NCBI GenBank assembly: GCA_020975725.1
Contig: QXJR01000029.1
Coordinates: 186,001 to 250,000, forward strand
DNA length: 64,000 nt
Direction: 5' to 3'
DNA from: Picocystis sp. L7
Taxonomy: Eukaryota > Chlorophyta > Picocystophyceae > Picocystales > Picocystaceae
The notes beneath the pieces are model-generated. The model had not been told where the DNA came from and ran no database searches. It worked only from the letters and a program-made list of their open reading frames with translations. Positions 9,892 through 64,000 of this stretch are shown in pieces; within the stretch, counting starts at the first letter, position 1, and each line of letters opens with the position of its first letter. Both the position numbers and the translations under genes were made by a program.

Positions 9892-11024
9892 CCTTGCGTG
9901 TGCTTTTCACCGGTCCATCGACGTGGTGGAATAGCGACACCAAAGACGAGGAGGAAGGAAACCAGAAGGAAAACCCAGGAGAAAACAAAACAAAAAAAAA
10001 ATGAAAAACAGGGAGGGGGACCAGGGAGGGCCGAGAAGGGCCGAGAAATCCGACCCAACAAGGGCAAAGAAGAAGAATAAAAAAAAAGAGGACGAAGGAT
10101 GGATGGACGGAAGGGTGGGCTCGTGTGGATCAACACGTCTATCTCCTTGAATGTGGGTGAATTTGATCGATCATTGTCCCAACCATTCGCTGCCTAGTGT
10201 GACCCTTCCGAATGCTCCCGCAGGCAAGCCACGACACCGGGTTCCAATTGCGAGTGCGTGGGTTCCTATGACCCCCATCGACATGCTCTTCCGACCTCTC
10301 GCGGGCTCGTGATTCCAACAAAGCAGCAAGCGTCCACGCTCCTCTCTCCCACTCCCTTCTGACCCTCTAGTGGAACCCATCCATCCGAGTTAGGCAGTGC
10401 TAAAGTCCCATGCACCTCGTGCTACATTCCTCCATGCTGCACAAGGACCAGCTAGTCCCATACATCCCATCCCGGGCTACCAACCTCCTCCCTTCTCTTG
10501 GGTTTGGAATATATTCACCGAACTGGGTCGACCCGTGTGCACGGGTCTTCGTATTGGGAATGTATCCTCCCTTTTTGGTGGGAAAGCGACAATTCGTTGG
10601 GCTTGATCCTAGGGATTCGTTGCCATAGGGTTGGAACGCTTATCTGGCGATGGCGGATCGATCGCATCTCACGTTGCTGACGTGGTGATGGGGTTGGAGC
10701 AGATGCAAGTAGGTAGGCGTTGTCGTTGTTCGTCATGCAAGAACGGTCCACCGGCACAGTCGCGAGCGCTTCTTGTCGTGCGCTTCCAGCGCGACAGACG
10801 AGAGCACGTCTCGTTGGGACCTCCGCTGACCAACGTGTTCTTCCTCTTGCTCCGTGGTTGATAGCGAGGGCGTTTGCCTCGTCTTCGGTTTCTTCACACT
10901 CCGTCTCGAGTGCCTGGGAGCCCCTTTCCTATTTTCTTTCTTTCTTTCTATGTCGGGTCCCCCGTTTGCCTCGGAGTGGGGATCGTGTCCCCAAGGAAGG
11001 ACTATTCCTTCCAACACCTCCCTT
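9892..11024. other. Divergent intergenic region between PPR-Smr and Ataxin-2
   Basis: It contains an A/G-rich run at about 9945-10085 just upstream of the PPR-Smr start and a pyrimidine tract at about 10930-10949. No gene is supported. It probably holds both promoters. An ATG at 10950 opens a frame that continues through the 33-bp repeat into Ataxin-2 exon 1. Confidence 0.45.
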
Positions 11025-11496
11025 TCGAAGCCAGAACAGAACCGGATGGATCCCCTTTCGAAGCCAGAACAGAACCGGATGGATCCCCTTTCGAAGCCAG
11101 AACAGAACCGGATGGATCCCCTTTCGAAGCCAGAACAGAACCGGATGGATCCCCTTTCGAAGCCAGAACAGAACCGGATGGATCCCCTTTCGAAGCCAGA
11201 ACAGAACCGGATGGATCCCCTTTCGAAGCCAGAACAGAACCGGATGGATCCCCTTTCGAAGCCAGAACAGAACCGGATGGATCCCCTTTCGAAGCCAGAA
11301 CAGAACCGGATGGATCCCCTTTCGAAGCCAGAACAGAACCGGATGGATCCCCTTTCGAAGCCAGAACAGAACCGGATGGATCCCCTTTCGAAGCCAGAAC
11401 AGAACCGGATGGATCCCCTTTCGAAGCTAGAACAGAACCGGATGGATCCCCTTTCGAAGCCAGAACAGAACCGGATGGATCCCCTTTCGAAGCCAG
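11025..11496 (+). repeat. 33-bp minisatellite, about 14 copies
   Basis: Fourteen nearly identical 33-bp units, plus a partial one, carry the core TTTCGAAGCCAGAACAGAAC followed by CGGATGGATCCCC. The only clear variant is one copy with GCTAG in place of GCCAG. Because 33 is divisible by three, several frames stay open. In the frame of Ataxin-2 exon 1 each unit would encode MDPLSKPEQNR. The near-identity of the units points to recent expansion. Confidence 0.95.
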
Positions 11497-11540
11497 ACGT
11501 GCAAGAGCTTCGTCGCATGGATCCGCGCGCGGATGCATCC

Positions 11541-13906
11541 ATGGCGATGTCGGCGCAGCGTTTGGCCTTCCTGGGACACGCCTTGGCCGGACAGCTCGTG
11601 GAGGTGGAGGTGAGACGAAGGACGCAACGCGTGGCGCGAAAGAGAGGTGGGACTCGAGACGTGTCGAGAGGGAAAACAAAAAAGAAAGAGGGAACGAAGG
11701 TCCGAAGCACGGATTCGCCAACACGCGCGCGATGCACGCGCGCGAGAAGACGCGAAACCCGCATGGAAGAGCAGGAACGGGACGACAAGGGAACAGAGAG
11801 GTGCTCCTGGGATGTTCGCAGGCGATGCCGCAGCCCTCGAGAGGTTCGATCCACGTGGCAGTGGGACCGAACGTGGAGGAGGAAAGGAGGAACCACGGGA
11901 AAGAAACGATGGAACGCGAACACGACGGGAAGGATGCGTGTGACCCGCGAAGCAGCGAGAAACGAAACTGACGGAAAGACATGCCGGCTGGACACGAACC
12001 CTTCCCACCCGAATCGTCACGAACGGCACTCGACGACGATCGAAAACCCAACACGGAACGGACCGATGCAACGGTCTTACACAACGGACCACCACGGCCT
12101 ACGTGCTGGTGAACAAATGATCACACGTGTGATTGGCATCGACCGGACGAAAAATCGAAACTGGGCTGGGACGCGGTTGTTGGGAAACGGTCCCCATGGG
12201 TACTACACCTTTCACACGGTCCTTGGACCACCCAGTTGGAAGATGGATCGCGCTACGAAGGCATATTCGCAAAAATGAGCGACGAAACCCATGTTGATTC
12301 ACTACCAGACGTGGAATTGCGCATGGTGCGCTGTGTGCTCACCCCCGATGTTGCGAAACAGAGCTATGCAACTCGCACCTTCCTGGAAATGAAAAAGGCA
12401 GCCGCCGGGAAGGCAAAGGATAGCAATGGGGAGAAGAAGCGGATCCGCCCGGAGCCTGTCTGGGTCATTCCAGGTGGATCGTTGCGACAGTTGATTGCAA
12501 GAAATGTTGGCATAAGGGCTCAGGATGTCGGGGACATCTCTCTGGCAGACGAACTGTCTACTGATGCTGCGCTGGCCAGAGCTTCTACACGCCGAGAGCC
12601 TCGCGAACTTGAGGCCTGGGTTCCAGACGGTGATGAAGCAGACTTTTTGACTTTGGAAGAAAGTGCCAGATCCGAAAGAGGATGGGACCAATTCAAGGTG
12701 AACGAAAGCGTTTTCGGTGTGAAGACTACTTTTGATGAAGATGTGTACACCACTCGATTGAACAAGGATGGCTGTACAATTACAGAGGAGGAAGCAGAGC
12801 TCATTGCCAAGGAAATCGAAGGGAAATTGACCACCAACCCTCATCAAATGGAGGAGCGAGGGCAGGCCCTGGATGCCTTTGGTGACGAAGTAGATGAGGA
12901 AGAAATGTATTCAAGTGTGAAGAGAGATTCCGATGCCACGGAAAAACCTAGCAAAACAGAACTTCCGCAGCCCAAAAAAGCTGCATGGTCCCAACCTGGA
13001 GCTGGTGTGACAATGCTTGCCGGGAAGCCTTCGATGACTATCCAATCAGCGCCAGTAGTTGTTCCCAACCATGCCGCTGCACCTTCTAGAAATGGAAAGG
13101 ATCAAAGCTCAGAATTCATCAAACAGGAACACAGAAGACTGAGGCAGCATTTGACTAATCCTAAGCCATCTGGCGGCACAGTTGGAAGCCCAGGCAGTAG
13201 ATACGCCTTGAAGAGTCCCTTGGTTAGCAATCCAACCGCAGTACAAGCCTTGAATTTAGAGCCAGGAGTGCCTAGGTTGGAAGCCAAAGCAATGCAAGAG
13301 TTCCAGAAGTTCAAGCAAGGGGAAGAAGCCAAGAGAAGAATGGAAGCAGGAAGCGAACGTGACCTGCAGAAGAAAGAACTGCAGGAATTTGCTGCACAGT
13401 TACGCCTGAAGGAGAAAAAAGTCGAAGTTGGGAGCTCATCTCCAAGGAAGGATCCTACCAATGGTATGCCGCCTCAACAGGACATGCGTACTCAGGAGCA
13501 AGGAAAGCTGAATCCAAGTGCAAAGCCTTTTTCGTTCAACCCCAATGCGAAGGCTTTCGTTTTGCCAAAGAAGAAAAACAGCCCTTCAATGGACAGAGGT
13601 GCACCAATACCGTATGGCATGTACATGCCAGCAAGCACAGCTTCTAATATGGCATATCCTCCAGGAACTTCCATGGCTCCGCCACCTGTTCCACATGGTG
13701 CCCCAGTGACGAGCCCTCCAGGCAGACCGACTTTTCCAATGGGGCATACGCTTCGACAGACCAATGCAATCCACGGAATGATGCCTCCTCCGATGATGTA
13801 TGTCGGAAGCCCACCAGGAGGTTTTGGTACTTCACCACCATTCATGCCTCCTCCCTCACCTCCAAGTGGGCCACCTCCTAGAAGAGAGGCGCAGAATGGA
13901 ACTTGA
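11541..13906 (+). CDS. Ataxin-2 homologue (LsmAD, PAM2), two exons
   Basis: Exon 1 is 11541-11609 and exon 2 is 12236-13906, giving 579 residues. The donor is GAG|GTGAGA and the acceptor CCCAG|TTGG, joined in phase 0. The join restores the Lsm-like fold: QRLAFLGHALAGQLVEVE from exon 1 runs into LEDGSRYEGIFAKMS from exon 2. The LsmAD domain lies at about 171-220 (GWDQFKVNESVFGVKTTFDE). A PAM2-type motif lies near 447-468 (KLNPSAKPF, with a second NPNAKAF next to it) and would bind PABP. The C-terminus is rich in Pro, Gly and Met. Ataxin-2 proteins act in RNA granules and translation control. The start is uncertain: ATGs also lie at 11518 and 11547, and the frame is open through the upstream repeat to 10950. 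The 626-bp intron stays open in the exon 1 frame almost to its end. Confidence 0.88.
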
Positions 13907-14351: not shown

Positions 14352-15774
14352 TCAACCCAACTTGAAGTCAAAAGGAAGGGCTACAACTTGGTCGGTGCTC
14401 ACTGCCCTCTGCATTATTATCCCGTCTTCTATATCGTCATCAAATTCCAATAGATAATCACCTACAAGTGCGCTTTTCTGTCTTTTTGGAGTAGCAACCA
14501 CAGCAGCACGATAAAATGCAGTGGTACCTGGAAAAACTGCCAAGACGTAGGTACCAGGCGGGAAGGTTTGGATTGTATGCCTAGAGTCCGGCTTTGGAAG
14601 CGGAATCACATTAATCCTCGTCAAGCGGTGGGTGTTGATTTCATCTTCACCTGCATGTTCATCTAATAGGTCAAAGTAGTGTTTGTCTTCGCTCTGTCCA
14701 ATGACCTTGCACACAATCCATTCATCAGCTTCAGCACTTGGAGGAGATACTCTGGCTGCTACATTGTCATCAATTTGTAGGTGCTTGAATGGGTCAATCT
14801 TTTCAGTCCGTACAGAAGATTTTCTTTTCACGTCCTTCCCTCTTGAGGTTTTCGGAGGCCGTACGGATGCTTGCAGAGAAGCGGCTTGCTGCTGCTGCAT
14901 CATCTCGTACGACAGGTCCCCTGCCATCAGGGCTTTTTCCAGTCCTGAGAGATCAGGGGGCAATGAATTTTGTGCGGCGAGCTCCTCCTGAAATTTCAAA
15001 ATATCGCGGTCCAGGTTGACCATGTTGATGTCTATCATTTCGTATGCTAAGACAGCTAACCTGACTTTTTCATGGGACCACTGAGTCACCAATTCGTATC
15101 GTTCTTCAACATCTCTCCGCAGCTCTTCAACCTTTTGGGCTTCACCATCCTGGGCCCTTTTGCCTGACTGAGACGACAGATGGAGCAACTTCTGCACCCT
15201 TTCCCTAGTACCTGCCATCAACTCGGCTGTCCTGTCATCTAGATCCCTGAGCGATCCCAGCAACCGCTGCAATTCCTGAGGCAGAGACACGATCCCTTAC
15301 AATACGATGCACAAGTTCAAGGACCATCCGTCAGTATCTGCTCAAAATTCGCTATACTTGCCAAATTACTTGGAACGTGTTTGTCGTTCTCCTGTTTAGG
15401 TCCGCACGTGACACAGCATTGTTTCGCACCGCTTTGCGAATGGAAGTGGTATTGAATCCTTCCCCACGAGCAGAACCGGGAAAGGAACAACCTACATTCA
15501 ATCCTGCCACTTGTTGCTTAGATTCCTCCTCACGCAACATTTGCGATATCATCCGCCAACTAGCCTGTGAGGACAGGTTGGCCCCAGTGGGTTCAGAGCC
15601 AAGCTCTTCCAATTCGGGTTGTATCGGACACCGTGGGTGCCGCACCAAGCGCGTCTCCTTGCACCAGCCCTTCCTTCGGGAGCTTTTCCTCGCGTCCTTT
15701 TCCTTCCGAAGCACGTCATACGCACCGTCTACGTAGTTCTCCAGGTACGTGGTGGAAGGCGCTTGAGCAGCCAT
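14352..15774 (-). CDS. SGF29: ING N-terminal domain fused to SGF29 tandem Tudor
   Basis: Exon 1 is 15774-15726 and exon 2 is 15295-14352, giving 330 residues. The donor is GACG|GTGCGT and the acceptor TTGTAAG|GGATC, and the 430-bp intron is phase 1. Splicing restores the ING start YLENYVDGIVSLPQELQRLL, continuing to LGSLRDLDDRT and VRLAVLAYEMIDINMVNLDRD; the ING-type helical domain spans about 10-121. A Gln-rich and basic linker follows. Residues about 195-330 are an SGF29 tandem Tudor (VAARVSPPSAEADEWIVCKV, then FPPGTYVLAVFPGTTAFYRA and YLLEFDDD). The expected aromatic cage for methylated H3K4 is F271, Y278 and F301, with Phe where human SGF29 has Tyr. SGF29 reads H3K4me2/3 in SAGA, and ING proteins scaffold other acetyltransferase or deacetylase complexes. 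Here the ING PHD finger is absent and the Tudor pair takes its place. I do not know this architecture from other organisms. Confidence 0.88.
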
Positions 15775-17131: not shown

Positions 17132-18191
17132 TCATCCTTGGCCATCTTGGTTGGGAGGCTGGTTGCCCATCGATGTGCCACTTGGCATACCATATCCCGG
17201 AAGTTGCCCTTGACCCATGAAATGCATTGTGCCTGGCTGAGTTGGTGCCCCCTGTGATTGACGGTAAAGCATCGTTGGATCCATCTGAACTGGTCTCCCT
17301 GCCACGGCATTGGGATCAGCTTGCATCTGCTGTGGCATATAATACATTCCTCCATAAAGTGCGCTGGGATCTGCTCCTCCTGGAACCCCCATCCCTGTTC
17401 TTTGCAAGCCCAGCCCATCATCCTTCAAATCGTCCCTCGGTACGATATCCACCAAGAAGTCGAAAATGTCTGTCTTGGTCACAGCTGCAGCTATGTCGTT
17501 TCTTTGTAGTGTGCGCCTTTTGTTTTCTTCAGAGTGAATCCAGGATCGAAGCGTCAGCTCCAAGATGAACATCTCACAGGCCTTAGCAAACAAAACAGGT
17601 GCTTCTGCGCTGATCATCCTCACGTCCTCGTCAGACTTCATGATTTTCTTTATCCTTGCAAGTGGGAGTTGGTGGTTTTTGAAATCTGCCGCTGTTTCAA
17701 CTTCCTGCGCCTGCTGCTGCCAGAACATCTGCAGTTGCTGCCTGTGGTGTGGAAGCATCTGTTGGTGCATTTGCATGTATGGTTGTACCTGCTGTTGGTA
17801 CTGCATTGGCATCTGCATACCCTGCTACGATGTTCCAACAGGTCTACAGGTCAGCCACGGCTTCCTTTGCTTCGCATTCCCGACGGACGTTCCCTGACAC
17901 AAAACCCTAACATGGTTTCCCACCCTTGCCTGGTCGTTCTCGAGTCTCGCACGGGAGAGGCCTTTCTTTTCTTCACGAAGCCGCACGTGTGCACTCCCCT
18001 TCCCATCCCTTCCCACACCCGTCTCTTCCTTCCTCCTGCTGCGTCCATCGCTTCTCTCTCTCGCTTCGTGGAGCGGACGCCGTGCGCTTCGCCAGGCGTG
18101 TTCGCGGCTGGGACGTGTCTTGCACGTCACGCACCTGGGCTGCGCCTGTTCCTGCGCTTGGTTGCTGTCCTGGAGGTGGTTGTTGCTCCAT
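17132..18191 (-). CDS. NF-YC: NF-YC histone-fold transcription factor subunit, two exons
   Basis: Exon 1 is 18191-18135 and exon 2 is 17821-17132, giving 248 residues. The donor is CCCAG|GTGCGT and the acceptor GTAGCAG|GGT, joined in phase 0 by a 313-bp intron. Exon 1 encodes [19 protein letters not shown]. The histone fold begins at the block [20 protein letters not shown] and continues through [20 protein letters not shown] and [20 protein letters not shown], which identifies NF-YC. The subunit pairs with NF-YB and then recruits NF-YA to CCAAT boxes. Flanking segments are rich in Gln, Met and Pro, as usual for activation regions. The exon 2 frame alone would lack a natural start before the Gln-rich segment, which supports the intron. 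Confidence 0.92.
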
Positions 18192-18845: not shown

Positions 18846-19523
18846 TCACATGAATCTCAAGACGTTGAAGCCCAGTGCAACGCACACAAAGGTGGCAATC
18901 GCATATCCAAACGTACCCACCAACATGGCAGGAACAAAAGAACGACGCCAACCCTTTGACACAGCCATGGCAACCGCCGTCGTTGGACCGCCCACGTTGG
19001 CATTGGACGCCAACAGAACATCACGACGGTCAAAACCAAACAGACGACCCAACAAAAAACAAACCAACAAATGAACGCCCACCTGGACAAAACAAAACAA
19101 AAACAAAGAAGGAGCCTTCGTCAACATGCCAACAATGCTGCCGCTCGCGCCAACGCTGGCCAAAAAGATGTTGATGATGATCCCCGCAAGACCCTCCCCG
19201 GACGGAGACAGAGGCTCCAACCAACCCGGAAACACCGTGGCCACAAACGTCACCAACAGCGTGATCAGAGGGATGCTGTACCCGGGAAAACCAAGGAAAC
19301 AGGCCAACCAGCTCCCACAGGCGCAAAGGAAAGAAGAGACCGCAATGGCAGTGGCGCACTGGAGGAAATTCAACGGGGTCTCGTACTCCTCGCTGAACGA
19401 CCCCGAGGCCTGCTTGACCAACTGGCCCTGGCTTTGACCCTCCGCTTCCTCATCCGGACCTAGATGGCGAGCCAGATAAAACAGCAACGCAAAGTAAAGC
19501 GCACAAAGGATGTTGTCAGCAGC
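18836..19523 (-). repeat. Gene-conversion tract, copy A
   Basis: About 688 bases match 20791-21478 at a constant offset of 1955 with no indels. I see one mismatch inside the coding part (18960 against 20915, synonymous). Outside these limits the two genes diverge abruptly. This is the signature of gene conversion or a very recent partial duplication of the 3' halves. Confidence 0.88.
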
Positions 19524-20159
19524 GAGCCCGGACGCAACTGCATCGCCAGAAGTGTCCAGTGCTGCTGTTGTGCTCACGTAGTTGATAGCACCACCGATAT
19601 GTCTGGCAGCAAGGGCAGACGCGATTTTCCAACCGTCAGCGCCCAAAGAATGAAGTGGGATCAAGTACATGGCCACCAAGGTCCCTAAGATAGTCCCAAC
19701 GGATCCAAGCGAAAACATAGTGAGCAGTCTACCTGTCTCTTTAAACACCCTTCTCAGATTCCCTTGAAAGAGCAGTAATGGGACTGCTAGTGGCAGCAGG
19801 TACTTGTTCACAAACCCATACACCGGGGCATCGAATGGGATTATTCCTATGTTACTGAAGGCAAGGGCGATCAGAATGGTGACAATCTGTCCGGTGAACT
19901 GCCTTCCCAGCGGCGTTGTTTCCGACCACATACCCGCCGCTGCTGCGAAGGAAAGTGCCGCCCAGCAACCCCAGTGGTTCGTAGGAGCGATCAACGACAT
20001 GCTCGTGCCACATTTCTGCCGCTGGGAACGCCTCCAGTGCTGCTTCTTGACCATTGGAAGCGGTGTACTGATGCTCCTTCTACATTTTCGTCCAGGGGAA
20101 GCACGTGACCGCAGGGGCCGAACGGCACTCGTTCGTCTTCCGACTGCGAGAGCAGGCAT
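18846..20159 (-). CDS. DUF819-family membrane protein, copy A
   Basis: This 437-residue polytopic membrane protein belongs to the DUF819 (YjcL-like) family, which in plants is predicted to be plastid-located and resembles transporters of the bile acid/sodium symporter type. Its substrate is unknown. Many hydrophobic helices follow residue 60, with family blocks such as GRLLTMFSLGSVGTILGTL, LAARHIGGAINYVS and NANVGGPTTAVAMAVSKGW. The start at 20159 gives MPALAVGRRTSAVRPLRSRA, a basic Ser/Arg-rich presequence that fits a transit peptide. The C-terminal half from LAADNILCALYFALLF onward is identical to copy B at protein level, while the N-terminal halves are only about 60% alike. The pair is in tandem on the minus strand. 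Confidence 0.85.
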   Translation of the reverse strand: MPALAVGRRTSAVRPLRSRASPGRKCRRSISTPLPMVKKQHWRRSQRQKCGTSMSLIAPTNHWGCWAALSFAAAAGMWSETTPLGRQFTGQIVTILIALAFSNIGIIPFDAPVYGFVNKYLLPLAVPLLLFQGNLRRVFKETGRLLTMFSLGSVGTILGTLVAMYLIPLHSLGADGWKIASALAARHIGGAINYVSTTAALDTSGDAVASGLAADNILCALYFALLFYLARHLGPDEEAEGQSQGQLVKQASGSFSEEYETPLNFLQCATAIAVSSFLCACGSWLACFLGFPGYSIPLITLLVTFVATVFPGWLEPLSPSGEGLAGIIINIFLASVGASGSIVGMLTKAPSLFLFCFVQVGVHLLVCFLLGRLFGFDRRDVLLASNANVGGPTTAVAMAVSKGWRRSFVPAMLVGTFGYAIATFVCVALGFNVLRFM

Positions 20160-20800
20160 GATCCTTTCCTCAACGCTCGAGCGCTTGTGGATGCGAGGAA
20201 ATGGCGAAGCGTGTGTCCGCTTTCGCCGTTCGTGTGCGCCAGCTCTGTCCCACGCGAAACCAATCACAACCGAATCCACCCCCCAATCGCCCTGGGAGTT
20301 GTATCCCGTGACTGGGGATCCCATCATGTGACACAACGGGTCAATCCAGGGGACACAAGTCTCAAGGGCACAGATCACCTGGACCAGGGTGGGGATCCAT
20401 GGTAGGAAACAGAACAGGTGGAGATGAACGAGGCGCTCCTTGCATGAGAGACAGGGACAAGGGATGAAACGGACCACTGCCCGTAGAAGGACATGGCAAT
20501 GCATGACCTCAAGCATGGCAATTCAACGCGATAGTGGCCACCTCGTTGCAAAACAAATTCAACGTGACAAGGAAAAGGACCTTGGACCGGCATGCGATTC
20601 CACTTCTTTTGCAAAACGAAGATGCATCGTGGTAGAGAAGCTTCCAGCTTGGACTTTTCTCTGATAGGTCAAGCAGCTCACATGAAGTTCTTAGAAAGAC
20701 CAACATCATGGGACACGGTTGGCAAGTAGGCTGGAGAATAAGGTACAGCTGGAGAACAAGGCAGTCCCATTTATGAAATGGTGAAACAAGTGCTTCCGTC
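20160..20800. other. Intergenic region between the two DUF819 genes
   Basis: It spans the promoter of copy A and the 3' region of copy B. I see no further gene. It is not duplicated on either side of the pair. Confidence 0.4.
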
Positions 20801-21478
20801 TCACATGAATCTCAAGACGTTGAAGCCCAGTGCAACGCACACAAAGGTGGCAATCGCATATCCAAACGTACCCACCAACATGGCAGGAACAAAAGAACGA
20901 CGCCAACCCTTTGAAACAGCCATGGCAACCGCCGTCGTTGGACCGCCCACGTTGGCATTGGACGCCAACAGAACATCACGACGGTCAAAACCAAACAGAC
21001 GACCCAACAAAAAACAAACCAACAAATGAACGCCCACCTGGACAAAACAAAACAAAAACAAAGAAGGAGCCTTCGTCAACATGCCAACAATGCTGCCGCT
21101 CGCGCCAACGCTGGCCAAAAAGATGTTGATGATGATCCCCGCAAGACCCTCCCCGGACGGAGACAGAGGCTCCAACCAACCCGGAAACACCGTGGCCACA
21201 AACGTCACCAACAGCGTGATCAGAGGGATGCTGTACCCGGGAAAACCAAGGAAACAGGCCAACCAGCTCCCACAGGCGCAAAGGAAAGAAGAGACCGCAA
21301 TGGCAGTGGCGCACTGGAGGAAATTCAACGGGGTCTCGTACTCCTCGCTGAACGACCCCGAGGCCTGCTTGACCAACTGGCCCTGGCTTTGACCCTCCGC
21401 TTCCTCATCCGGACCTAGATGGCGAGCCAGATAAAACAGCAACGCAAAGTAAAGCGCACAAAGGATGTTGTCAGCAGC
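20791..21478 (-). repeat. Gene-conversion tract, copy B
   Basis: This is the partner of 18836-19523, colinear and almost identical. The boundary at about 21478 falls within codons for LAADNILC, where the two genes become clearly different again. Confidence 0.88.
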
Positions 21479-22081
21479 CAGTGCTGCTACCGCCACTTCG
21501 GAAGATGTCTGGAGCGCAGACGATGTTCCAACGAAATTGACGGAGCCACCAATGTAGCTTGCAGCCAGTGCTGAAGCGACTTTCCATCTGTCTTCTCCCA
21601 ATGCAGTCAATGGGATAAGCTTGAAGGCAGCAAGGGTTCCAATGACCGTGGCCATGGACCCCAAGGAGAACATGGATAGCAACCTTCCTGTCTCTTTCAA
21701 GGTACGTCTCAGGTTGGCTTGGAGCATCAGCAGGGCTACTCCCAGGGGTAGAAGTTGTGCATTGACAAAGTCGTAGACCGGTGCTTCGAAGGGAATGATG
21801 CCTGCGTTGCTGAGTCCCAAGCCCAACGCCATGGTGACGATTTCTCCGGTGACGAACTTCTTCGCAGCGGTCTTCTGCGACCAGCTTCCCACCGCCGTCG
21901 CGAGCATCAGTGCCGTCCAGCAAGCCCAATGGTTTCCAGGCGAGACCAAGGCCATGCGGGTGCGGTTTCGCCTCCGCCGATCCACGGCGTGTCGTTTCGG
22001 AGCCACGTGCACACGCGTTCCTTGGTTCCTCCATCGCGCGGTTCGGGGCTTCTCCTCCTTCCACCCCGCCCCGATCCGCAT
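20801..22081 (-). CDS. DUF819-family membrane protein, copy B
   Basis: This 426-residue paralogue of the gene at 18846-20159 has the same topology and lies directly upstream on the same strand. Family blocks include GRLLSMFSLGSMATVIGTL, LAASYIGGSVNFVG and the shared C-terminal half. The N-terminus MRIGAGWKEEKPRTARW is basic and could be a presequence. The frame is also open to an upstream ATG at 22186 that would add 35 residues, so the start is uncertain. The substrate is unknown. Confidence 0.83.
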   Translation of the reverse strand: MRIGAGWKEEKPRTARWRNQGTRVHVAPKRHAVDRRRRNRTRMALVSPGNHWACWTALMLATAVGSWSQKTAAKKFVTGEIVTMALGLGLSNAGIIPFEAPVYDFVNAQLLPLGVALLMLQANLRRTLKETGRLLSMFSLGSMATVIGTLAAFKLIPLTALGEDRWKVASALAASYIGGSVNFVGTSSALQTSSEVAVAALAADNILCALYFALLFYLARHLGPDEEAEGQSQGQLVKQASGSFSEEYETPLNFLQCATAIAVSSFLCACGSWLACFLGFPGYSIPLITLLVTFVATVFPGWLEPLSPSGEGLAGIIINIFLASVGASGSIVGMLTKAPSLFLFCFVQVGVHLLVCFLLGRLFGFDRRDVLLASNANVGGPTTAVAMAVSKGWRRSFVPAMLVGTFGYAIATFVCVALGFNVLRFM

Positions 22082-22384
22082 GTGCTGGGACCAGCACCCG
22101 GTCGGGGCACACCCGTCCCTCCGCCGGGGTGCCTCCGCCGCGTGGGTGGGCGTGGCTGGGAGTCTCTGGTGATCCCAACACACCATGGTGGCGGGTGGGG
22201 CAGGGATCCACCATGGATAGACACCAACCCAAGGGAATGGAACCTAGGTCGTGGCGGAGCCATGCCTCGAGGAGAGAAACCACGGCGGATGCGCTGGTCG
22301 GGGAACAGGTGGAGAAGCAAGGCTCGAGCGCGGAAGATCGACCTGGATATCCGGAGGAACGCGTGCGGCTGAGATGTCCATCGC
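22082..22384. other. Short intergenic region
   Basis: This is the upstream region of DUF819 copy B and the 3' region of the UBA-PUB gene, both on the minus strand. No gene is seen. Confidence 0.4.
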
Positions 22385-31299: not shown

Positions 31300-32166
31300 A
31301 TGGTGCAAGAAGAGGACAGGCCTCCTCTCAAAAGGAAAGATGTCAACGTAACAACCTCGAAGGCCGCCAAGTCGATGGAAGATCAAAGATCACGCAATAC
31401 GTGGACGAACGCACGGAAGTACGCGCTCTTGAATCAGATTTGCGTGGAGTCATGTGACCCATTCAAGGTCGATGCAAATCGTGATCAGAGGAAGAAAGCG
31501 TGGGAGGCTTTGGTTGCATCCCTCCGAGAGCACACTGATGGACTTTTCGCGGAGTTCGAATTGTCTATCGATTCTGTTCAGCGGCGGGTAGCTATGTTGG
31601 CCCGAGAGGCGCGGAAGTGGAACGAGGATGCAAGGGCCTCTACTGGTCGAGGAGGGGGGTATGCCCATACAGAGGTGGAGGAACTTCAACAACGTTTGGT
31701 GGAGAAGATCGACGAGCGAGCTGCAGCATCGAAGGCTGTACGTGACGAACTTGCTTTGCGACGTGCAACATTGACGGAGCAAGGGCGCAACAACGTGAGT
31801 CGTCAAATGGAGACGCACCGCCAAACGGCGAAGCGCGGACGGTCGTCCATGTCCAAAGGAAACGATGGTGCTTTGTGTGCTGAGGTCGAAGACACTCGTA
31901 AGAGCATGGACGACATTTGCGATCTCACGCGTAAAGCTTTGCTCCATGCGACGCGTTCCAATGCACGTGCCGAGTGGGCACGCGAGTTCGAGCTTCACAA
32001 GAGGTTCCCGAACGACTTTCCAAGCCCAGGACCACGCGACGAATGGGTAGCAGCTGCTGTGAACACCTTCGAGGAGGAGAATGGGAGCCTTCTCCGCCGT
32101 TCATCTTCCAGACCCTCGACCATTTCGTCGGAGATGGAGGAGGTTGTCGTGAACGAAGCTACTTGA
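31300..32166 (+). CDS. Harbinger Myb/SANT-like DNA-binding protein
   Basis: This 288-residue protein carries a Myb/SANT-like trihelix segment (NTWTNARKYALLNQICVES, then KKAWEALVASLR and QRRVAMLAREARKWN). A charged helical region rich in Arg, Glu and Lys follows. In PIF/Harbinger elements the second gene encodes such a protein, which binds the element and brings the transposase into the nucleus. I chose the ATG at 31300; the frame upstream opens from GTG. The protein sits inside the TIRs and converges on the transposase gene. Confidence 0.8.
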   Translation: MVQEEDRPPLKRKDVNVTTSKAAKSMEDQRSRNTWTNARKYALLNQICVESCDPFKVDANRDQRKKAWEALVASLREHTDGLFAEFELSIDSVQRRVAMLAREARKWNEDARASTGRGGGYAHTEVEELQQRLVEKIDERAAASKAVRDELALRRATLTEQGRNNVSRQMETHRQTAKRGRSSMSKGNDGALCAEVEDTRKSMDDICDLTRKALLHATRSNARAEWAREFELHKRFPNDFPSPGPRDEWVAAAVNTFEEENGSLLRRSSSRPSTISSEMEEVVVNEAT

Positions 32167-32465
32167 GAACGTAAAGTAGATTTGCAAATTTCTATTCCTA
32201 CTTCTTTTTCGTCCATTCCACAACTTTGCGTCCTCGGAAGTTCCCTACTTGCGAGCTATGTCGACCGCGATGTTGTTGCATAAAAGAAATTTTGTTTCTT
32301 ACCTTTATTACAAAGAGTGCGATGACTCAGTAGGGTGGAAAAGACAGAACACAACTCCACCACTTGCAACCTTTCATCATCCACATCCACAGGTTGTCAC
32401 TCACCAATGCAAAACATTTCGCAATGTAACATTCATACTGTACACACCGTACTCCGCTTCCCATC

Positions 32466-33846
32466 CAGCAGATTTCTGCAACCAGCGAGAAACCATCCAG
32501 CAGATTTCTGCAACCATCCAGCAACCATCCAGCAGATTTCTGCAACCAGCGAGAAACCATCCAGCAGATTTCTGCAACCTTCCAGCAACCAACCAGCAGA
32601 TTTCTGCAACCATCCAGCAACCATCCAGCAGATTTCTGCAACCAGCGAGAAACCATCCAGCAGATTTCTGCAACCTTCTAGCAACCAACCAGCAGATTTC
32701 TGCAACCATCCAGCAACCATCCAGCAGATTTCTGCAACCAGCGAGAAACCATCCAGCAGATTTCTGCAACCAGCGAGAAACCATCCAGCAGATTTCTGCA
32801 ACCAGCGAGAAACCATCCAGCAGATTTCTGCAACTATCCAGCAACCATCCAGCAGATTTCTGCAACCAGCGAGAAACCATCCAGCAGATTTCTGCAACCA
32901 GCGAGAAACCATCCAGCAGATTTCTGCAACCAGCGAGAAACCATCCAGCAGATTTCTGCAACCAGCGAGAAACCATCCAGCAGATTTCTGCAACCTTCCA
33001 GCAACCAACCAGCAGATTTCTGCAACCATCCAGCAACCATCCAGCAGATTTCTGCAACCAGCGAGAAACCATCCAGCAGATTTCTGCAACCTTCCAGCAA
33101 CCAACCAGCAGATTTCTGCAACCATCCAGCAACCATCCAGCAGATTTCTGCAACCAGCGAGAAACCATCCAGCAGATTTCTGCAACTATCCAGCAACCAT
33201 CCAGCAGATTTCTGCAACCAGCGAGAAACCATCCAGCAGATTTCTGCAACCAGCGAGAAACCATCCAGCAGATTTCTGCAACCAGCGAGAAACCATCCAG
33301 CAGATTTCTGCAACCAGCGAGAAACCATCCAGCAGATTTCTGCAACCTTCCAGCAACCAACCAGCAGATTTCTGCAACCATCCAGCAACCATCCAGCAGA
33401 TTTCTGCAACCAGCGAGAAACCATCCAGCAGATTTCTGCAACCTTCCAGCAACCAACCAGCAGATTTCTGCAACCATCCAGCAACCATCCAGCAGATTTC
33501 TGCAACCAGCGAGAAACCATCCAGCAGATTTCTGCAACCAGCGAGAAACCATCCAGCAGATTTCTGCAACCAGCGAGAAACCATCCAGCAGATTTCTGCA
33601 ACCTTCCAGCAACCAACCAGCAGATTTCTGCAACCATCCAGCAACCATCCAGCAGATTTCTGCAACCAGCGAGAAACCATCCAGCAGATTTCTGCAACCT
33701 TCCAGCAACCAACCAGCAGATTTCTGCAACCATCCAGCAACCATCCAGCAGATTTCTGCAACCAGCGAGAAACCATCCAGCAGATTTCTGCAACCTTCCA
33801 GCAACCATCCAGCAGACTTTTGCAACCGTCCAGATAATTTTTGCAA
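32466..33846 (+). repeat. 32-bp minisatellite inside the Harbinger element, about 43 units
   Basis: Each unit has a constant 19-base core (CAGCAGATTTCTGCAACCA) and a 13-base linker of three main kinds (GCGAGAAACCATC, TCCAGCAACCATC, TCCAGCAACCAAC). The core contains the inverted repeat GCAGA-TT-TCTGC. Linker types recur in blocks, often as a 96-bp triplet, so the array has higher-order structure. A 96-bp period keeps several frames open, and the 350 to 560-residue frames here are artefacts. The array lies between the stops of the two transposon genes. Confidence 0.95.
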
Positions 33847-33863
33847 GGAGCGAGAGATGACTC

Positions 33864-35054
33864 TCATGGCTCTGATGCAGATGACACATCTACATGCGCA
33901 GCAAACTTCGCCTTGTATTGACTCATAGATGGAGGCTGCATCTCGAAGAACCTATTCGCAACGCCTCCGTATGCACAAGTGTGGAAGTTAGTCAACATTG
34001 CCGCTACCCAGTCCTCCATACCTGTTGCTCGCGAACCTGTAACCTTCCTCGTCTTGTCAGTAATGAAGGGCCATATGTTCCCAAGCTTTCCAAACACCCA
34101 CTCCACACTTTCACGGTATCGAGACATGTCCCGCGCCAGCATGCGTTCTGAGCGTGTGATCCTGTTTCCTTTTGGAGCGCGTAGGAGGACGTCACACTGT
34201 GGATAAGCTGAATCACCATACATGTACAGCGTGCTACCAAAACGATCGCGCATCCCCTGCAACCTCGGAATCAATCTAGAGTCATCCAACATCACCGAGT
34301 CGTTCGTTCGGCCACTTGCCGGTCCATGCCAATCACCAATCAAAAAATTAGGCAACACCACGCATTGGTATTTCGTTTTGTGCCCTCGCTTCCATCCGTT
34401 GTACATGCTTTCCTGGTCAATGATGGGACGACATATGTCAAACATCGTCCCATCAATGAACCCAAAACAATGAGGCAACGGACATCCCTGTTCCCGTAAT
34501 GCATGCGCGAAAGCTGCCAACTCGTCCTCCCATAGCTCTAAACGCATTGATACTCTTGCGATCCTGTACACGTGACGAAGGATCACGTTGTACATCTCGG
34601 ACAGGGCAGGAGGTGAACGATCGAAGATCGTGGCCAAGTGTGTCAGGGTTTCCCGTCCCGCTAGTCTGCGCAACAAGAGAAGGAACGCTTCTTCTCCCTT
34701 GAAAACACGTCCACAAGTAGGACTCCGCAACCGCTCGGGGATCTCTAACAAGCGGATAAGCTCCCGAATGTGACCACGATCAAAACGAAAGTTCCCACGC
34801 AACGTAGCGTCCTCGAAATCGTCCAGCCAACGCGCGTTGTTCGAAATAGCAACCCGAGGATTCCAGCGTTGCTTCATCTGACGCAGCAAGCGTTGGCAAC
34901 GCAGGACCACCATTGCAAAAGCAGACGAGAGTGCAATCGACAGCTCCGGATGGTTAGGGAACGCGACGAGCATTGCCTCCCGCATCCGCAAGCTCTTCTC
35001 CCGCATCTCCTCCGTCTGGATGATCTGGAGCACTCGACCATACCTTTGAGGCAT
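33864..35054 (-). CDS. Harbinger DDE transposase (DDE_Tnp_4)
   Basis: This 396-residue protein matches PIF/Harbinger transposases. An N-terminal helical region (about 1-95) is followed by a helix-turn-helix-like block (FKGEEAFLLLLRRLAGRETL). The RNase H-like core shows the first Asp in GFIDGTMFDICRP, GHKTKYQCVVLPNF, the block GPASGRTNDSVML, the second Asp in MYGDSAYPQCDVLL and the Glu in RYRESVEWVFGKLGNIWPF. The catalytic DDE set therefore appears intact. The length is typical. ATG at 35054. It belongs to the element bounded by 45-bp TIRs. Confidence 0.93.
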   Translation of the reverse strand: MPQRYGRVLQIIQTEEMREKSLRMREAMLVAFPNHPELSIALSSAFAMVVLRCQRLLRQMKQRWNPRVAISNNARWLDDFEDATLRGNFRFDRGHIRELIRLLEIPERLRSPTCGRVFKGEEAFLLLLRRLAGRETLTHLATIFDRSPPALSEMYNVILRHVYRIARVSMRLELWEDELAAFAHALREQGCPLPHCFGFIDGTMFDICRPIIDQESMYNGWKRGHKTKYQCVVLPNFLIGDWHGPASGRTNDSVMLDDSRLIPRLQGMRDRFGSTLYMYGDSAYPQCDVLLRAPKGNRITRSERMLARDMSRYRESVEWVFGKLGNIWPFITDKTRKVTGSRATGMEDWVAAMLTNFHTCAYGGVANRFFEMQPPSMSQYKAKFAAHVDVSSASEP

Positions 35055-35393
35055 CGTGCTCGGCGTTGTTTGCTTCCCGCGTTCCTCGAGGCGAATGTAT
35101 ACCGCGGAGGATCCTCTAGGTTTCGGTCGAGGCTGACCGTCCGACGAAATCCTCTGCGCATCTGTTTTTTAGGATCCCATACTGGGCCAATCCGTAGGCT
35201 TTCTCATCCCCCAACTGTACGAGATGCGTAGAGGACGCAAGGTTTCATCCGCCGAAAACCCCACGATTTCGTCCGGTTTTGGCTCGACGGAGGATCCCCA
35301 AATCCGGGTTTAGGGATTTTTTTTGGTTAAAAACCCTCCGAAGTTGTTCGTCGGGGCAAATCCGAAGTCCTCTAATGCGTCCACTCGAAACCT

Positions 35394-36350
35394 GCATCGC
35401 CTCGATGCGAGGCAGGTCGCAACGGGACGCACCTGCAGGTTCGCCCAGGTGCATCGCCTCGATGCGAGGCAGGTCGCAACGGGACGCACCTGCAGGTTCG
35501 CCCAGGTGCATCGCCTCGATGCGAGGCAGGTCGCGACGGGACGCACCTGCAGGTTCGCCCAGGTGCATCGGCTCGATGCGAGGCAGGTCGCAACGGGACG
35601 CACCTGCAGGTTCGCCCAGGTGCATCGGCTCGATGCGAGGCAGGTCGCGACGGGACGCACCTGCAGGTTCGCCCAGGTGCATCGCCTCGATGCGAGGCAG
35701 GTCGCAACGGGACGCACCTGCAGGTTCGCCCAGGTGCATCGGCTCGATGCGAGGCAGGTCGCAACGGGACGCACCTGCAGGTTCGCCCAGGTGCATCGGC
35801 TCGATGCGAGGCAGGTCGCGACGGGACGCACCTGCAGGTTCGCCCAGGTGCATCGGCTCGATGCGAGGCAGGTCGCGACGGGACGCACCTGCAGGTTCGC
35901 CCAGGTGCATCGCCTCGATGCGAGGCAGGTCGCAACGGGACGCACCTGCAGGTTCGCCCAGGTGCATCGGCTCGATGCGAGGCAGGTCGCAACGGGACGC
36001 ACCTGCAGGTTCGCCCAGGTGCATCGGCTCGATGCGAGGCAGGTCGCGACGGGACGCACCTGCAGGTTCGCCCAGGTGCATCGCCTCGATGCGAGGCAGG
36101 TCGCGACGGGACGCACCTGCAGGTTCGCCCAGGTGCATCGGCTCGATGCGAGGCAGGTCGCGACGGGACGCACCTGCAGGTTCGCCCAGGTGCATCGGCT
36201 CGATGCGAGGCAGGTCGCAACGGGACGCACCTGCAGGTTCGCCCAGGTGCATCGGCTCGATGCGAGGCAGGTCGCGACGGGACGCACCTGCAGGTTCGCC
36301 CAGGTGCATCGGCTCGATGCGAGGCAGGTCGCGACGGGACGCACCTGCAG
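35394..36350 (+). repeat. 57-bp satellite array, about 17 units
   Basis: Units of 57 bp begin with CATCGCCTCGATGCGAGGCA or the CATCGGCTCGATG variant and contain the palindrome ACCTGCAGGT. Only two positions vary regularly: GCCT/GGCT and CAACG/CGACG. The array starts about 20 bases past the right end of the Harbinger element. The unit is divisible by three, so up to six frames remain open; I do not treat these as genes. Flanking DNA to 36963 shows no clear gene. Confidence 0.95.
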
Positions 36351-61712: not shown

Positions 61713-64000
61713 TCAAATCACATGGACACTGTGCTTGCGATATTGCTTTCTGTACACAACGATCGCCGCGCAAATTAGGGCCACTGCCACAACTGCTCCA
61801 ATGCTCACTAATACATACACCAGCGTGTTGCTAGCCTTTCCTCCATTCTCTTCTGGTGGCGGGCTCTCCTGCCCGTCAGATGGTGCCTGCAAATTGATCT
61901 CTGAATAACCATCAAGAAAGCTGATACCTTGAATGTCTGGAAATATGCTTGCCTTCAATGTCTCAAGGATTTCAACCAATGAGCCAGCATCCTCAAACTT
62001 GTTCAGTAGAGAGACTGCTTTGGCTTCGCCTTTGACGGCAAATGTAATATTCAAGTCCACCCCAACGTTTGATAGGAATAGCAAGCTGCTCTCAATTTGA
62101 TTTGATTCACGAATCAGACAAAGACCCACCCCGGCAAAGTCCTCAAGAACAAGTACGAATGCCTCCATTTGCGTAATTAGGTCACCAAGAGCAACCCCAC
62201 TGGTGCGAAGACTAACCACCACAAGAAATTCTGCCTCACAACTACCTGAATCGTAAATTGGTCCTGGCAGAACACTTGGATTATCAGCAGGAGGGGTTGG
62301 AGCATTAGGAAGAGAGCTTGGCGGTGTAAACGTACCATCAGATGGAGCTTCTTCCAGTGGCGGTTCCATTACCCCCTCATCATCTTCCTCAGGAGGACTA
62401 ACAGGCACTCCTTGCTCTCCTGTGCACTCCACCGTGTGCACGATCACGTCGTTGTCTACCAATTCGATCTCCCCCTCCAACGTGCAGGGATCTACACACG
62501 GTGAACTCAGGGAACAAAGTGTATCATCCAAGCACGTGCTCAGCAATGTGGAGGTCCGGTTCTGGGTCTCCTCCTCCAGTGAGCAAGAAGAAAAGTCTGT
62601 GAAGGGCTCGATTTTCATGCAGTTCTCGATGCTCGTGTCATTTGGAAAAAGGAAGCAATAACAGAACGAGGCTTCGCAGGGCTGATGAGGGTACACCTCC
62701 TCCGAACCATCTGCAGGTGGAGGATCCAACGGAGCTGGTTCAGGAGGGGTGCACTCCACCGTGTGCACGATCACGTCGTTGTCTACCAATTCGATCTCCC
62801 CCTCCAACGTGCAGGGACCCCCACATGTTTGGACGGACGTACAGAACAGATCGTCTGAACACGTGCTCAGCAATGTGGAGGTCCGGTTCTGGGTCTCCTC
62901 CTCCAGTGAGCAAGAAGAAAAGTCTGTGAAGGGCTCAATTTTCATGCAGTTCTCGATGCTCGTGTCATTTGGAAAAAGGAAGCAATAACAGAACGAGGCT
63001 TCGCAGGGCTGATGAGGGTACACCTCCTCCGAACCATCTGCAGGTGGAGGATCCAACGGAGCTGGTTCAGGAGGGGTGCACTCCACCGTGTGCACGATCA
63101 CGTCGTTGTCTACCAATTCGATCTCCCCCTCCAACGTGCAGGGACCCCCACATGTTTGGACGGACGTACAGAACAGATCGTCTGAACACGTGCTCAGCAA
63201 TGTGGAGGTCCGGTTCTGGGTCTCCTCCTCCAGTGAGCAAGAAGAAAAGTCTGTGAAGGGCTCGATTTTCATGCAGTTCTCGATGCTCGTGTCATTTGGA
63301 AAAAGGAAGCAATAACAGAACGAGGCTTCGCAGGGCTGATGAGGGTACACCTCCTCCGAACCATCTGCAGGTGGAGGATCCAACGGAGCTGGTTCAGGAG
63401 GGGTGCACTCCACCGTGTGCACGATCACGTCGTTGTCTACCAATTCGATCTCCCCCTCCAACGTGCAGGGACCCCCACATGTTTGGACGGACGTACAGAA
63501 CAGATCGTCTGAACACGTGCTCAGCAATGTGGAGGTCCGGTTCTGGGTCTCCTCCTCCAGTGAGCAAGAAGAAAAGTCTGTGAAGGGCTCGATTCTCATA
63601 CAGTTCTCGATGCTCGTGTCATTTGGAAAAAGGAAGCAATAGCAGAACGGGGCTTCACAAGGTTGAGAAGCTGAAAAATTGGAGTCATTGCTTTCTTCCA
63701 ACCTTCTCCCCTCTCTTGTAAGAGGAGCTGGTAAATAAGTTTGGGGCACAACATGCACAGACTTGGAGTCCTCTGTCAGATACGTGCAAGGGGCTGTGTG
63801 GGTGTAGTAATGTTCGGCGACTTCTTCAACAAATCCTTCGTCAAAACATTGTTTCCTGCAGTCAACATTGTCTTCACAGGTTCCAGCTTCCAGGGAACAA
63901 ATACTGCTGGCCACTACATACCTTGTCTTGTTGTGAACTCCGTCCAAACATGGGGAGAATTCCCCGATGGATGCGACGGCCATGCATAGATTTCTCTCAT
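61713..64000 (-). CDS. Repeat-bearing type I membrane glycoprotein, 5' end beyond the window
   Basis: From the first ATG in the window (63983) there are 756 residues, but the frame stays open to the window edge and there is no signal peptide, so the true start probably lies outside. The ectodomain holds a Cys-rich N-terminal part and four nearly identical 109-residue repeats, each starting near QPCEASFCYCFLFPND and ending with VDNDVIVHTVECT plus a short Pro-rich linker. A non-repeated juxtamembrane domain follows (VVVSLRTSGVALGDLITQME, VDLNITFAVKGEAKAVSLLN). One transmembrane helix (TLVYVLVSIGAVVAVALICA) and a short basic tail end the protein. I do not recognise the family. It is likely a cell-surface protein. 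Confidence 0.78.
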   Translation of the reverse strand, partial: ERNLCMAVASIGEFSPCLDGVHNKTRYVVASSICSLEAGTCEDNVDCRKQCFDEGFVEEVAEHYYTHTAPCTYLTEDSKSVHVVPQTYLPAPLTREGRRLEESNDSNFSASQPCEAPFCYCFLFPNDTSIENCMRIEPFTDFSSCSLEEETQNRTSTLLSTCSDDLFCTSVQTCGGPCTLEGEIELVDNDVIVHTVECTPPEPAPLDPPPADGSEEVYPHQPCEASFCYCFLFPNDTSIENCMKIEPFTDFSSCSLEEETQNRTSTLLSTCSDDLFCTSVQTCGGPCTLEGEIELVDNDVIVHTVECTPPEPAPLDPPPADGSEEVYPHQPCEASFCYCFLFPNDTSIENCMKIEPFTDFSSCSLEEETQNRTSTLLSTCSDDLFCTSVQTCGGPCTLEGEIELVDNDVIVHTVECTPPEPAPLDPPPADGSEEVYPHQPCEASFCYCFLFPNDTSIENCMKIEPFTDFSSCSLEEETQNRTSTLLSTCLDDTLCSLSSPCVDPCTLEGEIELVDNDVIVHTVECTGEQGVPVSPPEEDDEGVMEPPLEEAPSDGTFTPPSSLPNAPTPPADNPSVLPGPIYDSGSCEAEFLVVVSLRTSGVALGDLITQMEAFVLVLEDFAGVGLCLIRESNQIESSLLFLSNVGVDLNITFAVKGEAKAVSLLNKFEDAGSLVEILETLKASIFPDIQGISFLDGYSEINLQAPSDGQESPPPEENGGKASNTLVYVLVSIGAVVAVALICAAIVVYRKQYRKHSVHVI
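62400..63665 (-). repeat. 327-bp coding repeats, four copies
   Basis: Four direct units spaced exactly 327 bp encode 109-residue Cys-rich modules. The middle units differ by very few bases. The membrane-proximal unit differs most, with CLDDTLCSLSSPCVDPC in place of CSDDLFCTSVQTCGGPC. Such uniformity suggests recent tandem duplication or ongoing homogenisation. Confidence 0.95.

What the first reader, a model, noticed from the sequence alone, without database searches (positions are those of the whole stretch)
14352..15774. ING domain fused to SGF29 tandem Tudor
Once a phase 1 intron is removed, one protein holds a full ING-type N-terminal domain and an SGF29 double Tudor with a likely H3K4me cage (F271, Y278, F301). 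ING proteins normally end in a PHD finger that reads H3K4me3; here a different H3K4me reader takes its place. This would join the scaffold of one class of acetyltransferase or deacetylase complex to the SAGA reader. I know of no such architecture. The domain calls are seen in the sequence; the functional link is inference.
Basis: partly seen in the sequence, partly recalled or inferred. Interest (0 to 1): 0.78.

Follow-up and report, generated by a model that had tools for sequence, protein, structure and literature searches.

The report
Algal ING domain fused to SGF29
A small green alga makes one protein that joins the anchoring half of an ING chromatin protein to the methyl-histone-reading half of SGF29, so a reader normally found in one acetylation machine appears to have been placed on the handle of another.

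Summary
One stop-free 314-codon frame (14352-15296, minus strand) carries an ING N-terminal domain (51.0 bits) and an SGF29 tandem Tudor (94.4 bits; cut-offs about 24), so the fusion does not depend on the intron. Joining the predicted exon 1 raises ING to 62.3 bits. F271, Y278, F301 and D303 line up with the human cage Y238, Y245, F264, D266. A database protein, 94% identical, has the same two domains. Six-frame search found no other SGF29 Tudor in the genome and one other ING over cut-off, a canonical ING-PHD. The host is an alga with chlorophyll a/b antenna proteins. GCN5, ADA2, two MYST enzymes, EPL1 and EAF6 were found, ADA3 not. The ING half scores best with plant ING2, a NuA4 subunit, and poorly with ING1, which recruits the GCN5 complex PAGA (on recalled sequences). 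Most likely reading: an ING2 whose PHD finger was replaced by SGF29's H3K4me reader, docked in a NuA4-like MYST complex. Complex membership is inferred.

The parts
15726..15774 (-). exon 1: ATG and first 16 codons plus one base (MAAQAPSTTYLENYVD + G); start of the ING domain
   Evidence: frame-keeping GT-AG junction; raises ING from 51.0 to 62.3 bits and completes profile positions 1-8
15296..15725 (-). predicted 430-nt phase 1 intron, GTGCGT...TAAG
   Evidence: no RNA evidence
14352..15295 (-). exon 2: rest of ING domain, linker, SGF29 tandem Tudor, stop
14991..15295 (-). ING N-terminal domain, exon 2 part (residues 17-118; whole domain is residues 10-118)
   Evidence: Pfam PF12998 62.3 bits; genome search 54.4 bits here; fold match to ING3/4/5
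14373..14768 (-). SGF29 tandem Tudor (residues 193-324)
14436..14534 (-). stretch holding the predicted H3K4me cage: F271 (14532-14534), Y278 (14511-14513), F301 (14442-14444), D303 (14436-14438)
   Evidence: alignment to human SGF29 chain 3lx7; residues checked; cage named in PMC4589357

Best explanation
A gene found once in a small-genome green-lineage alga encodes an ING2-type protein whose C-terminal PHD finger has been replaced by the SGF29 tandem Tudor. Shown: both domains in one frame, an intact cage, a separately recorded relative with the same layout, no other SGF29 Tudor found in the genome, and one separate ING-PHD. Inferred: the two long helices of the ING half pack with EPL1 and EAF6 in a NuA4/Piccolo-like MYST complex, as Yng1 does with Nto1 and Eaf6. 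The Tudors then hold that complex on H3K4me2/3 nucleosomes in place of the PHD. Because ADA3, SGF29's companion in the GCN5 module, was not detected, SGF29's reader seems to have moved from the SAGA-type to the NuA4-type machine, while the other ING (with PHD, on balance ING1-like) may serve the GCN5 complex.
For: Both domains far above Pfam cut-offs in one uninterrupted frame; relative P0001 with the same two domains, 18 differences in 314 aligned residues, spread evenly: ING 6/102, linker 5/72, Tudor 7/140. One SGF29 Tudor found in the genome; ING over cut-off at 2 of 5 matches, the other being ING+PHD. Fusion ING domain versus recalled Arabidopsis ING2: score 215, shuffle z 31, the best of the five partners tried; versus recalled ING1: 99, z 10; it shares with ING2 an insertion of seven residues and the PPD tail. 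The ING-PHD gene is closer to recalled ING1 over its length (363 v 313) and in its PHD (212 v 193). ING2 co-purifies with HAM1, EPL1A/B, EAF6; ING1 recruits the GCN5 complex PAGA (PMC12579105 passages). Yng1 N-terminal helices bundle with Nto1 and Eaf6 (PMC12789522 passages). The genome holds 2 MYST, 1 EPL1 and EAF6, GCN5 and ADA2; ADA3 gave only 17.3 bits, below its cut-off, in a frame that I read as an SMC protein. Human Y238F, the same residue change as F271 here, binds H3K4me2/3 like wild type (PMC4589357 passages).
Against: No transcript, binding or complex data. My ING1 scores low with every partner (99-142), so its low score with the fusion partly reflects its own divergence; the fusion also scores 164 with the alga's ING-PHD and 151 and 147 with human ING4 and ING5. 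By N-domain score the ING-PHD gene is a little nearer ING2 (159) than ING1 (142), so the two-ING assignment is not clean. ADA3 absence is a six-frame profile miss in an assembly of unstated completeness and could be divergence or a gap. The known relative is very close, so conservation shows little beyond recent constraint. EAF6's second copy is marginal (26.2 bits against 25).
Confidence: 0.55

Rival explanations
1. The fusion is a subunit of the GCN5/ADA2 acetyltransferase: ING1 works with GCN5 in plant PAGA and SGF29 sits in SAGA, so the fusion merges two GCN5 partners into one H3 acetyltransferase subunit in a lineage without ADA3.
For: GCN5 and ADA2 were found in the genome; ADA3 not detected; ING1 recruits PAGA in Arabidopsis and rice (PMC12579105 passages); ADA3, ADA1, SPT20 and SGF73 were reported not detected in about 20 Chlorophyta genomes (PMC7915528 passages).
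Against: The ING half scores best with ING2 (215) and worst of five with ING1 (99) (recalled yardsticks), and ING2 goes with NuA4.
Confidence: 0.27
2. SGF29's ordinary N-terminal coiled coil is itself a distant ING domain in all eukaryotes, and this alga merely kept the resemblance; there was no fusion.
Against: Profile of 29 plant SGF29 N-termini against five ING sequences scored 12.5 (14.4 against the three canonical ones); 28 of 100 column shuffles and 14 of 45 SMC3 windows reached 12.5, and the reversed ING profile gave 12.0, whereas the fusion's ING domain against canonical INGs gave 95.3. The hairpin matches seryl-tRNA synthetase (10.6) and designed bundles (10.2) equally. None of 4 plant SGF29s hit Pfam ING at E up to 10, within HMMER's filters. 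The algal domain scores as high as a true ING (62.3 v 62.3 bits).
Confidence: 0.06
3. The protein belongs to a histone deacetylase complex, as some ING proteins do.
For: The yeast ING protein Pho23 has solved chains (its place in the Rpd3 deacetylase complex is recalled); plant ING2 was reported with HDC1 (PMC12579105 passage).
Against: Sds3 was not detected in the genome, which is weak evidence; SGF29 is known as a coactivator subunit.
Confidence: 0.08
4. Artefact: wrong gene model, chimeric assembly or a dead gene.
For: No RNA evidence; the intron is predicted.
Against: Both domains are in one open frame without any splice; a separately recorded relative, 94% identical, has the same layout; 18 differences, none in the cage.
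Confidence: 0.04

Closest known systems
Plant ING2 (Arabidopsis AT1G54390), NuA4 subunit
   Same: N-terminal helical domain with an insertion of seven residues and a PPD tail (recalled sequence)
   Different: no PHD finger; SGF29 tandem Tudor instead
SGF29 (SAGA/ATAC HAT module; human SGF29, Arabidopsis SGF29a/b)
   Same: tandem Tudor with conserved cage; 32-37% identity to 24 database SGF29 proteins in the alignment
   Different: the N-terminal coiled coil is replaced by an ING domain; the 119 other proteins listed carry no ING domain
Yeast Yng1/Yng2 and human ING4/ING5
   Same: ING N-domain fold and an H3K4me-reading C-terminus
PAGA complex (GCN5-ADA2A, recruited by ING1) in Arabidopsis and rice
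   Same: shows that an ING protein can work with GCN5
   Different: nothing I saw describes ING1 and SGF29 as one protein there; the ING half here is ING2-like
Plasmodium GCN5 complex, where PfPHD1 replaces the SGF29 reader (PMC8396726 passages)
   Same: swap between a PHD finger and the SGF29 Tudor as H3K4me3 reader of an acetyltransferase
   Different: opposite direction and no fusion described in the passages seen

Membership tests
ING family | N-terminal helical ING domain | tested here: met
   PF12998 62.3 bits, 1-102/102; fold match to ING3/4/5
ING family | C-terminal PHD finger reading H3K4me3 | tested here: not met
   no PHD in the protein; the stop is at 14352 and the next frame with a domain (LsmAD, opposite strand) ends at 13906
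ING2 subfamily (plant NuA4) | closer to ING2 than ING1, with the seven-residue insertion | tested here: met
   215 v 99; yardsticks recalled, only PHD parts checked; no tree was built
SGF29 family | SGF29 tandem Tudor | tested here: met
SGF29 family | aromatic cage Y/F, Y, F and acidic D266 | tested here: met
   F271, Y278, F301, D303 (cage from PMC4589357)
SGF29 family | acidic pocket for the H3 N-terminus (human D194/D196, recalled) | tested here: inconclusive
   acidic residues E205, D207, E208 lie in the matching stretch; not modelled
SGF29 family | own N-terminal coiled coil | tested here: not met
   its place is taken by an ING domain; profile comparison shows no relation, though the fold is alike
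SAGA / NuA4 subunit | physical presence in the complex | not testable with these tools
   needs purification

The most novel reading that the evidence does not exclude
In a green algal lineage without ADA3, the SGF29 H3K4me reader left the GCN5 module and was joined to the NuA4-type ING (ING2) in place of its PHD finger, so that an H4 acetyltransferase is now steered by SAGA's reader; ING-PHD and SGF29-Tudor are interchangeable parts.
Probability: 0.45. Interest if true: 0.75.

Novelty: new variant of a known kind. Interest (0 to 1): 0.6.

Why it matters
It is a natural domain swap between two H3K4me readers that belong to different acetyltransferase machines, in a genome where no other SGF29 Tudor was found. 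It makes a testable case that reader modules are exchangeable between SAGA-type and NuA4-type complexes, and it may explain how SGF29 survives in green algae in which ADA3 was not found. A fusion of this kind also points to a functional link between ING2/NuA4 and SGF29 that could be looked for in plants.

Tried and rejected

Literature: searches for SGF29 with 'ING domain' and with 'inhibitor of growth' plus 'coiled-coil' gave 0 papers; SGF29 with 'inhibitor of growth' gave 10, seen as listing only except passages of PMC8396726, none titled on a fusion. SGF29 with 'red alga' gave 1 and with 'green algae' 2. This does not show that no paper reports it. The library holds open-licence papers only, and the supplementary tables of PMC7915528, which may list algal SGF29s, could not be opened (cap 0; not tried).

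Full report
What is there. On the minus strand, 14352-15296 is one frame of 314 codons without a stop. Pfam finds in it an ING N-terminal domain (51.0 bits) and an SGF29 tandem Tudor (94.4 bits), both far over cut-offs of about 24. The key claim, one protein with both domains, therefore needs no intron. Of two GT-AG pairs found near the expected ends, one keeps the frame and adds MAAQAPSTTYLENYVD from 15726-15774. With it the ING domain becomes complete (profile 1-102) and rises to 62.3 bits, the same as the genome's canonical ING protein. The splice remains a prediction without RNA.

Independent copy. The protein database holds P0001, 324 aa, 94% identical, in a cluster of 20 member sequences, with the same two Pfam domains. 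Over 314 aligned residues there are 18 differences: 6 of 102 in ING, 5 of 72 in the linker, 7 of 140 in the Tudor part; none is a cage residue. Its first residues do not match exon 1; I read them as the end of its intron translated, so its own exon 1 is not seen. This argues against an assembly chimera, but the relative is too close to say when the fusion arose.

Host and gene set. The assembly is 20.5 Mb in 30 contigs; its completeness is not stated. It has 18 matches to the chlorophyll a/b binding family, one of them LHCII-like, and no phycobilisome linker was found. The host is therefore an alga of the green lineage or, less likely, one with a secondary green plastid; its name is not known. 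Searched in six frames: SGF29 Tudor 1; ING over the cut-off 2 of 5 matches, this one and an ING-PHD on contig C17; ADA2 1; GCN5 (GNAT plus bromodomain) 1, seen when the frames of 6 of the 11 bromodomain matches were scanned (the frames of L027/L028, L030/L031 and L033 were not scanned, and L026 and L032 were scanned only as far as the locus reached); MYST 2 over cut-off, both with a Tudor-knot chromodomain; EPL1 1; EAF6 2, the second marginal; ADA3 none over cut-off, the single weak match lying in a frame that reads as an SMC protein (my reading of the translation); Sds3 none. [quoted passage not shown] Whether those SGF29s carry an ING domain I could not see.

Which ING. Arabidopsis ING1 recruits the GCN5 complex PAGA; ING2 co-purifies with NuA4 subunits HAM1, EPL1A/B and EAF6 and was also reported with HDC1 (PMC12579105, passages). 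Their PHD parts match the solved chains 9m4s (ING2, identical over 73 residues) and 9m4r (ING1, with two residues missing in my copy); their N-terminal parts are unchecked. The fusion's ING domain scores 215 with ING2 (z 31 over 500 shuffles), 164 with the alga's ING-PHD, 151 and 147 with human ING4 and ING5, and 99 with ING1 (z 10); it shares with ING2 an insertion of seven residues and a PPD tail. My ING1 scores low with all partners (99-142), so the contrast partly reflects ING1's divergence. The ING-PHD gene is mixed: its N-domain scores 142 with ING1 and 159 with ING2, but full length it is 363 v 313 and its PHD 212 v 193 in favour of ING1. So the fusion is most likely the ING2 of this alga. 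No tree was built.

Mechanism. In yeast NuA3 the two N-terminal helices of Yng1 bundle with a C-terminal helix of Nto1 and with Eaf6 (PMC12789522, passages). The inferred picture is that the fusion docks by these helices to EPL1 and EAF6 in a NuA4-like complex and reads H3K4me2/3 with the Tudor pair. Shown: domains, cage residues, copy number found, gene set found. Inferred: binding, docking, targeting. The main rival is a place in the GCN5/ADA2 complex, where SGF29 normally sits and with which ING1 works in plants.

Fusion or old kinship. SGF29's own N-terminus is also a two-helix hairpin. I tested whether it is a distant ING domain: 29 plant SGF29 N-termini against an ING profile scored 12.5, reached by 28 of 100 column shuffles and 14 of 45 SMC3 windows, while the fusion's ING domain against canonical INGs scored 95.3; one of five single ING sequences, ING5, gave a weak hit (20.6). 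The predicted hairpin resembles ING chains no more than seryl-tRNA synthetase or designed bundles. A true fusion is the better reading. The plant set is shallow (effective sequences 1.5), so a deep kinship is not excluded.

Novelty. Of 120 proteins listed only P0001 has both domains; the other 119 have the SGF29 Tudor and no ING. Those with an organism name are land plants, and 260 further hits were not listed. Paper searches showed no report of an ING-SGF29 protein. I rate it a new variant of known kinds: known parts, a combination I could not find described.

Noticed in passing
window 11020-11497: 33-base tandem array, 14.5 copies, 99% matches, crossed by at least four long open frames on both strands (e.g. 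SKPEQNRMDPL repeats), upstream of the LsmAD (ataxin-2-like) gene.
   Followed up: no
window 32461-33827: 32-base array of 42.7 copies, in a stretch with strong GC skew (-0.283 for 32001-34000).
   Followed up: no
window 35393-36350 and 62422-63656: 57-base array (16.8 copies, 98%) and 327-base array (3.8 copies, 97%).
   Followed up: no
window 18846-20522 and 20801-22243: two adjacent DUF819 frames on the same strand, a likely tandem duplication.
   Followed up: no
L019 1093-1707 (contig C8): second, diverged EAF6-like protein (26.2 bits, cut-off 25) with an N-terminal extension; with two MYST enzymes and two ING domains it hints at two MYST complexes.
   Followed up: partly
window 17132-17824: NF-YC-like histone-fold frame near the fusion, same strand.
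   Followed up: no
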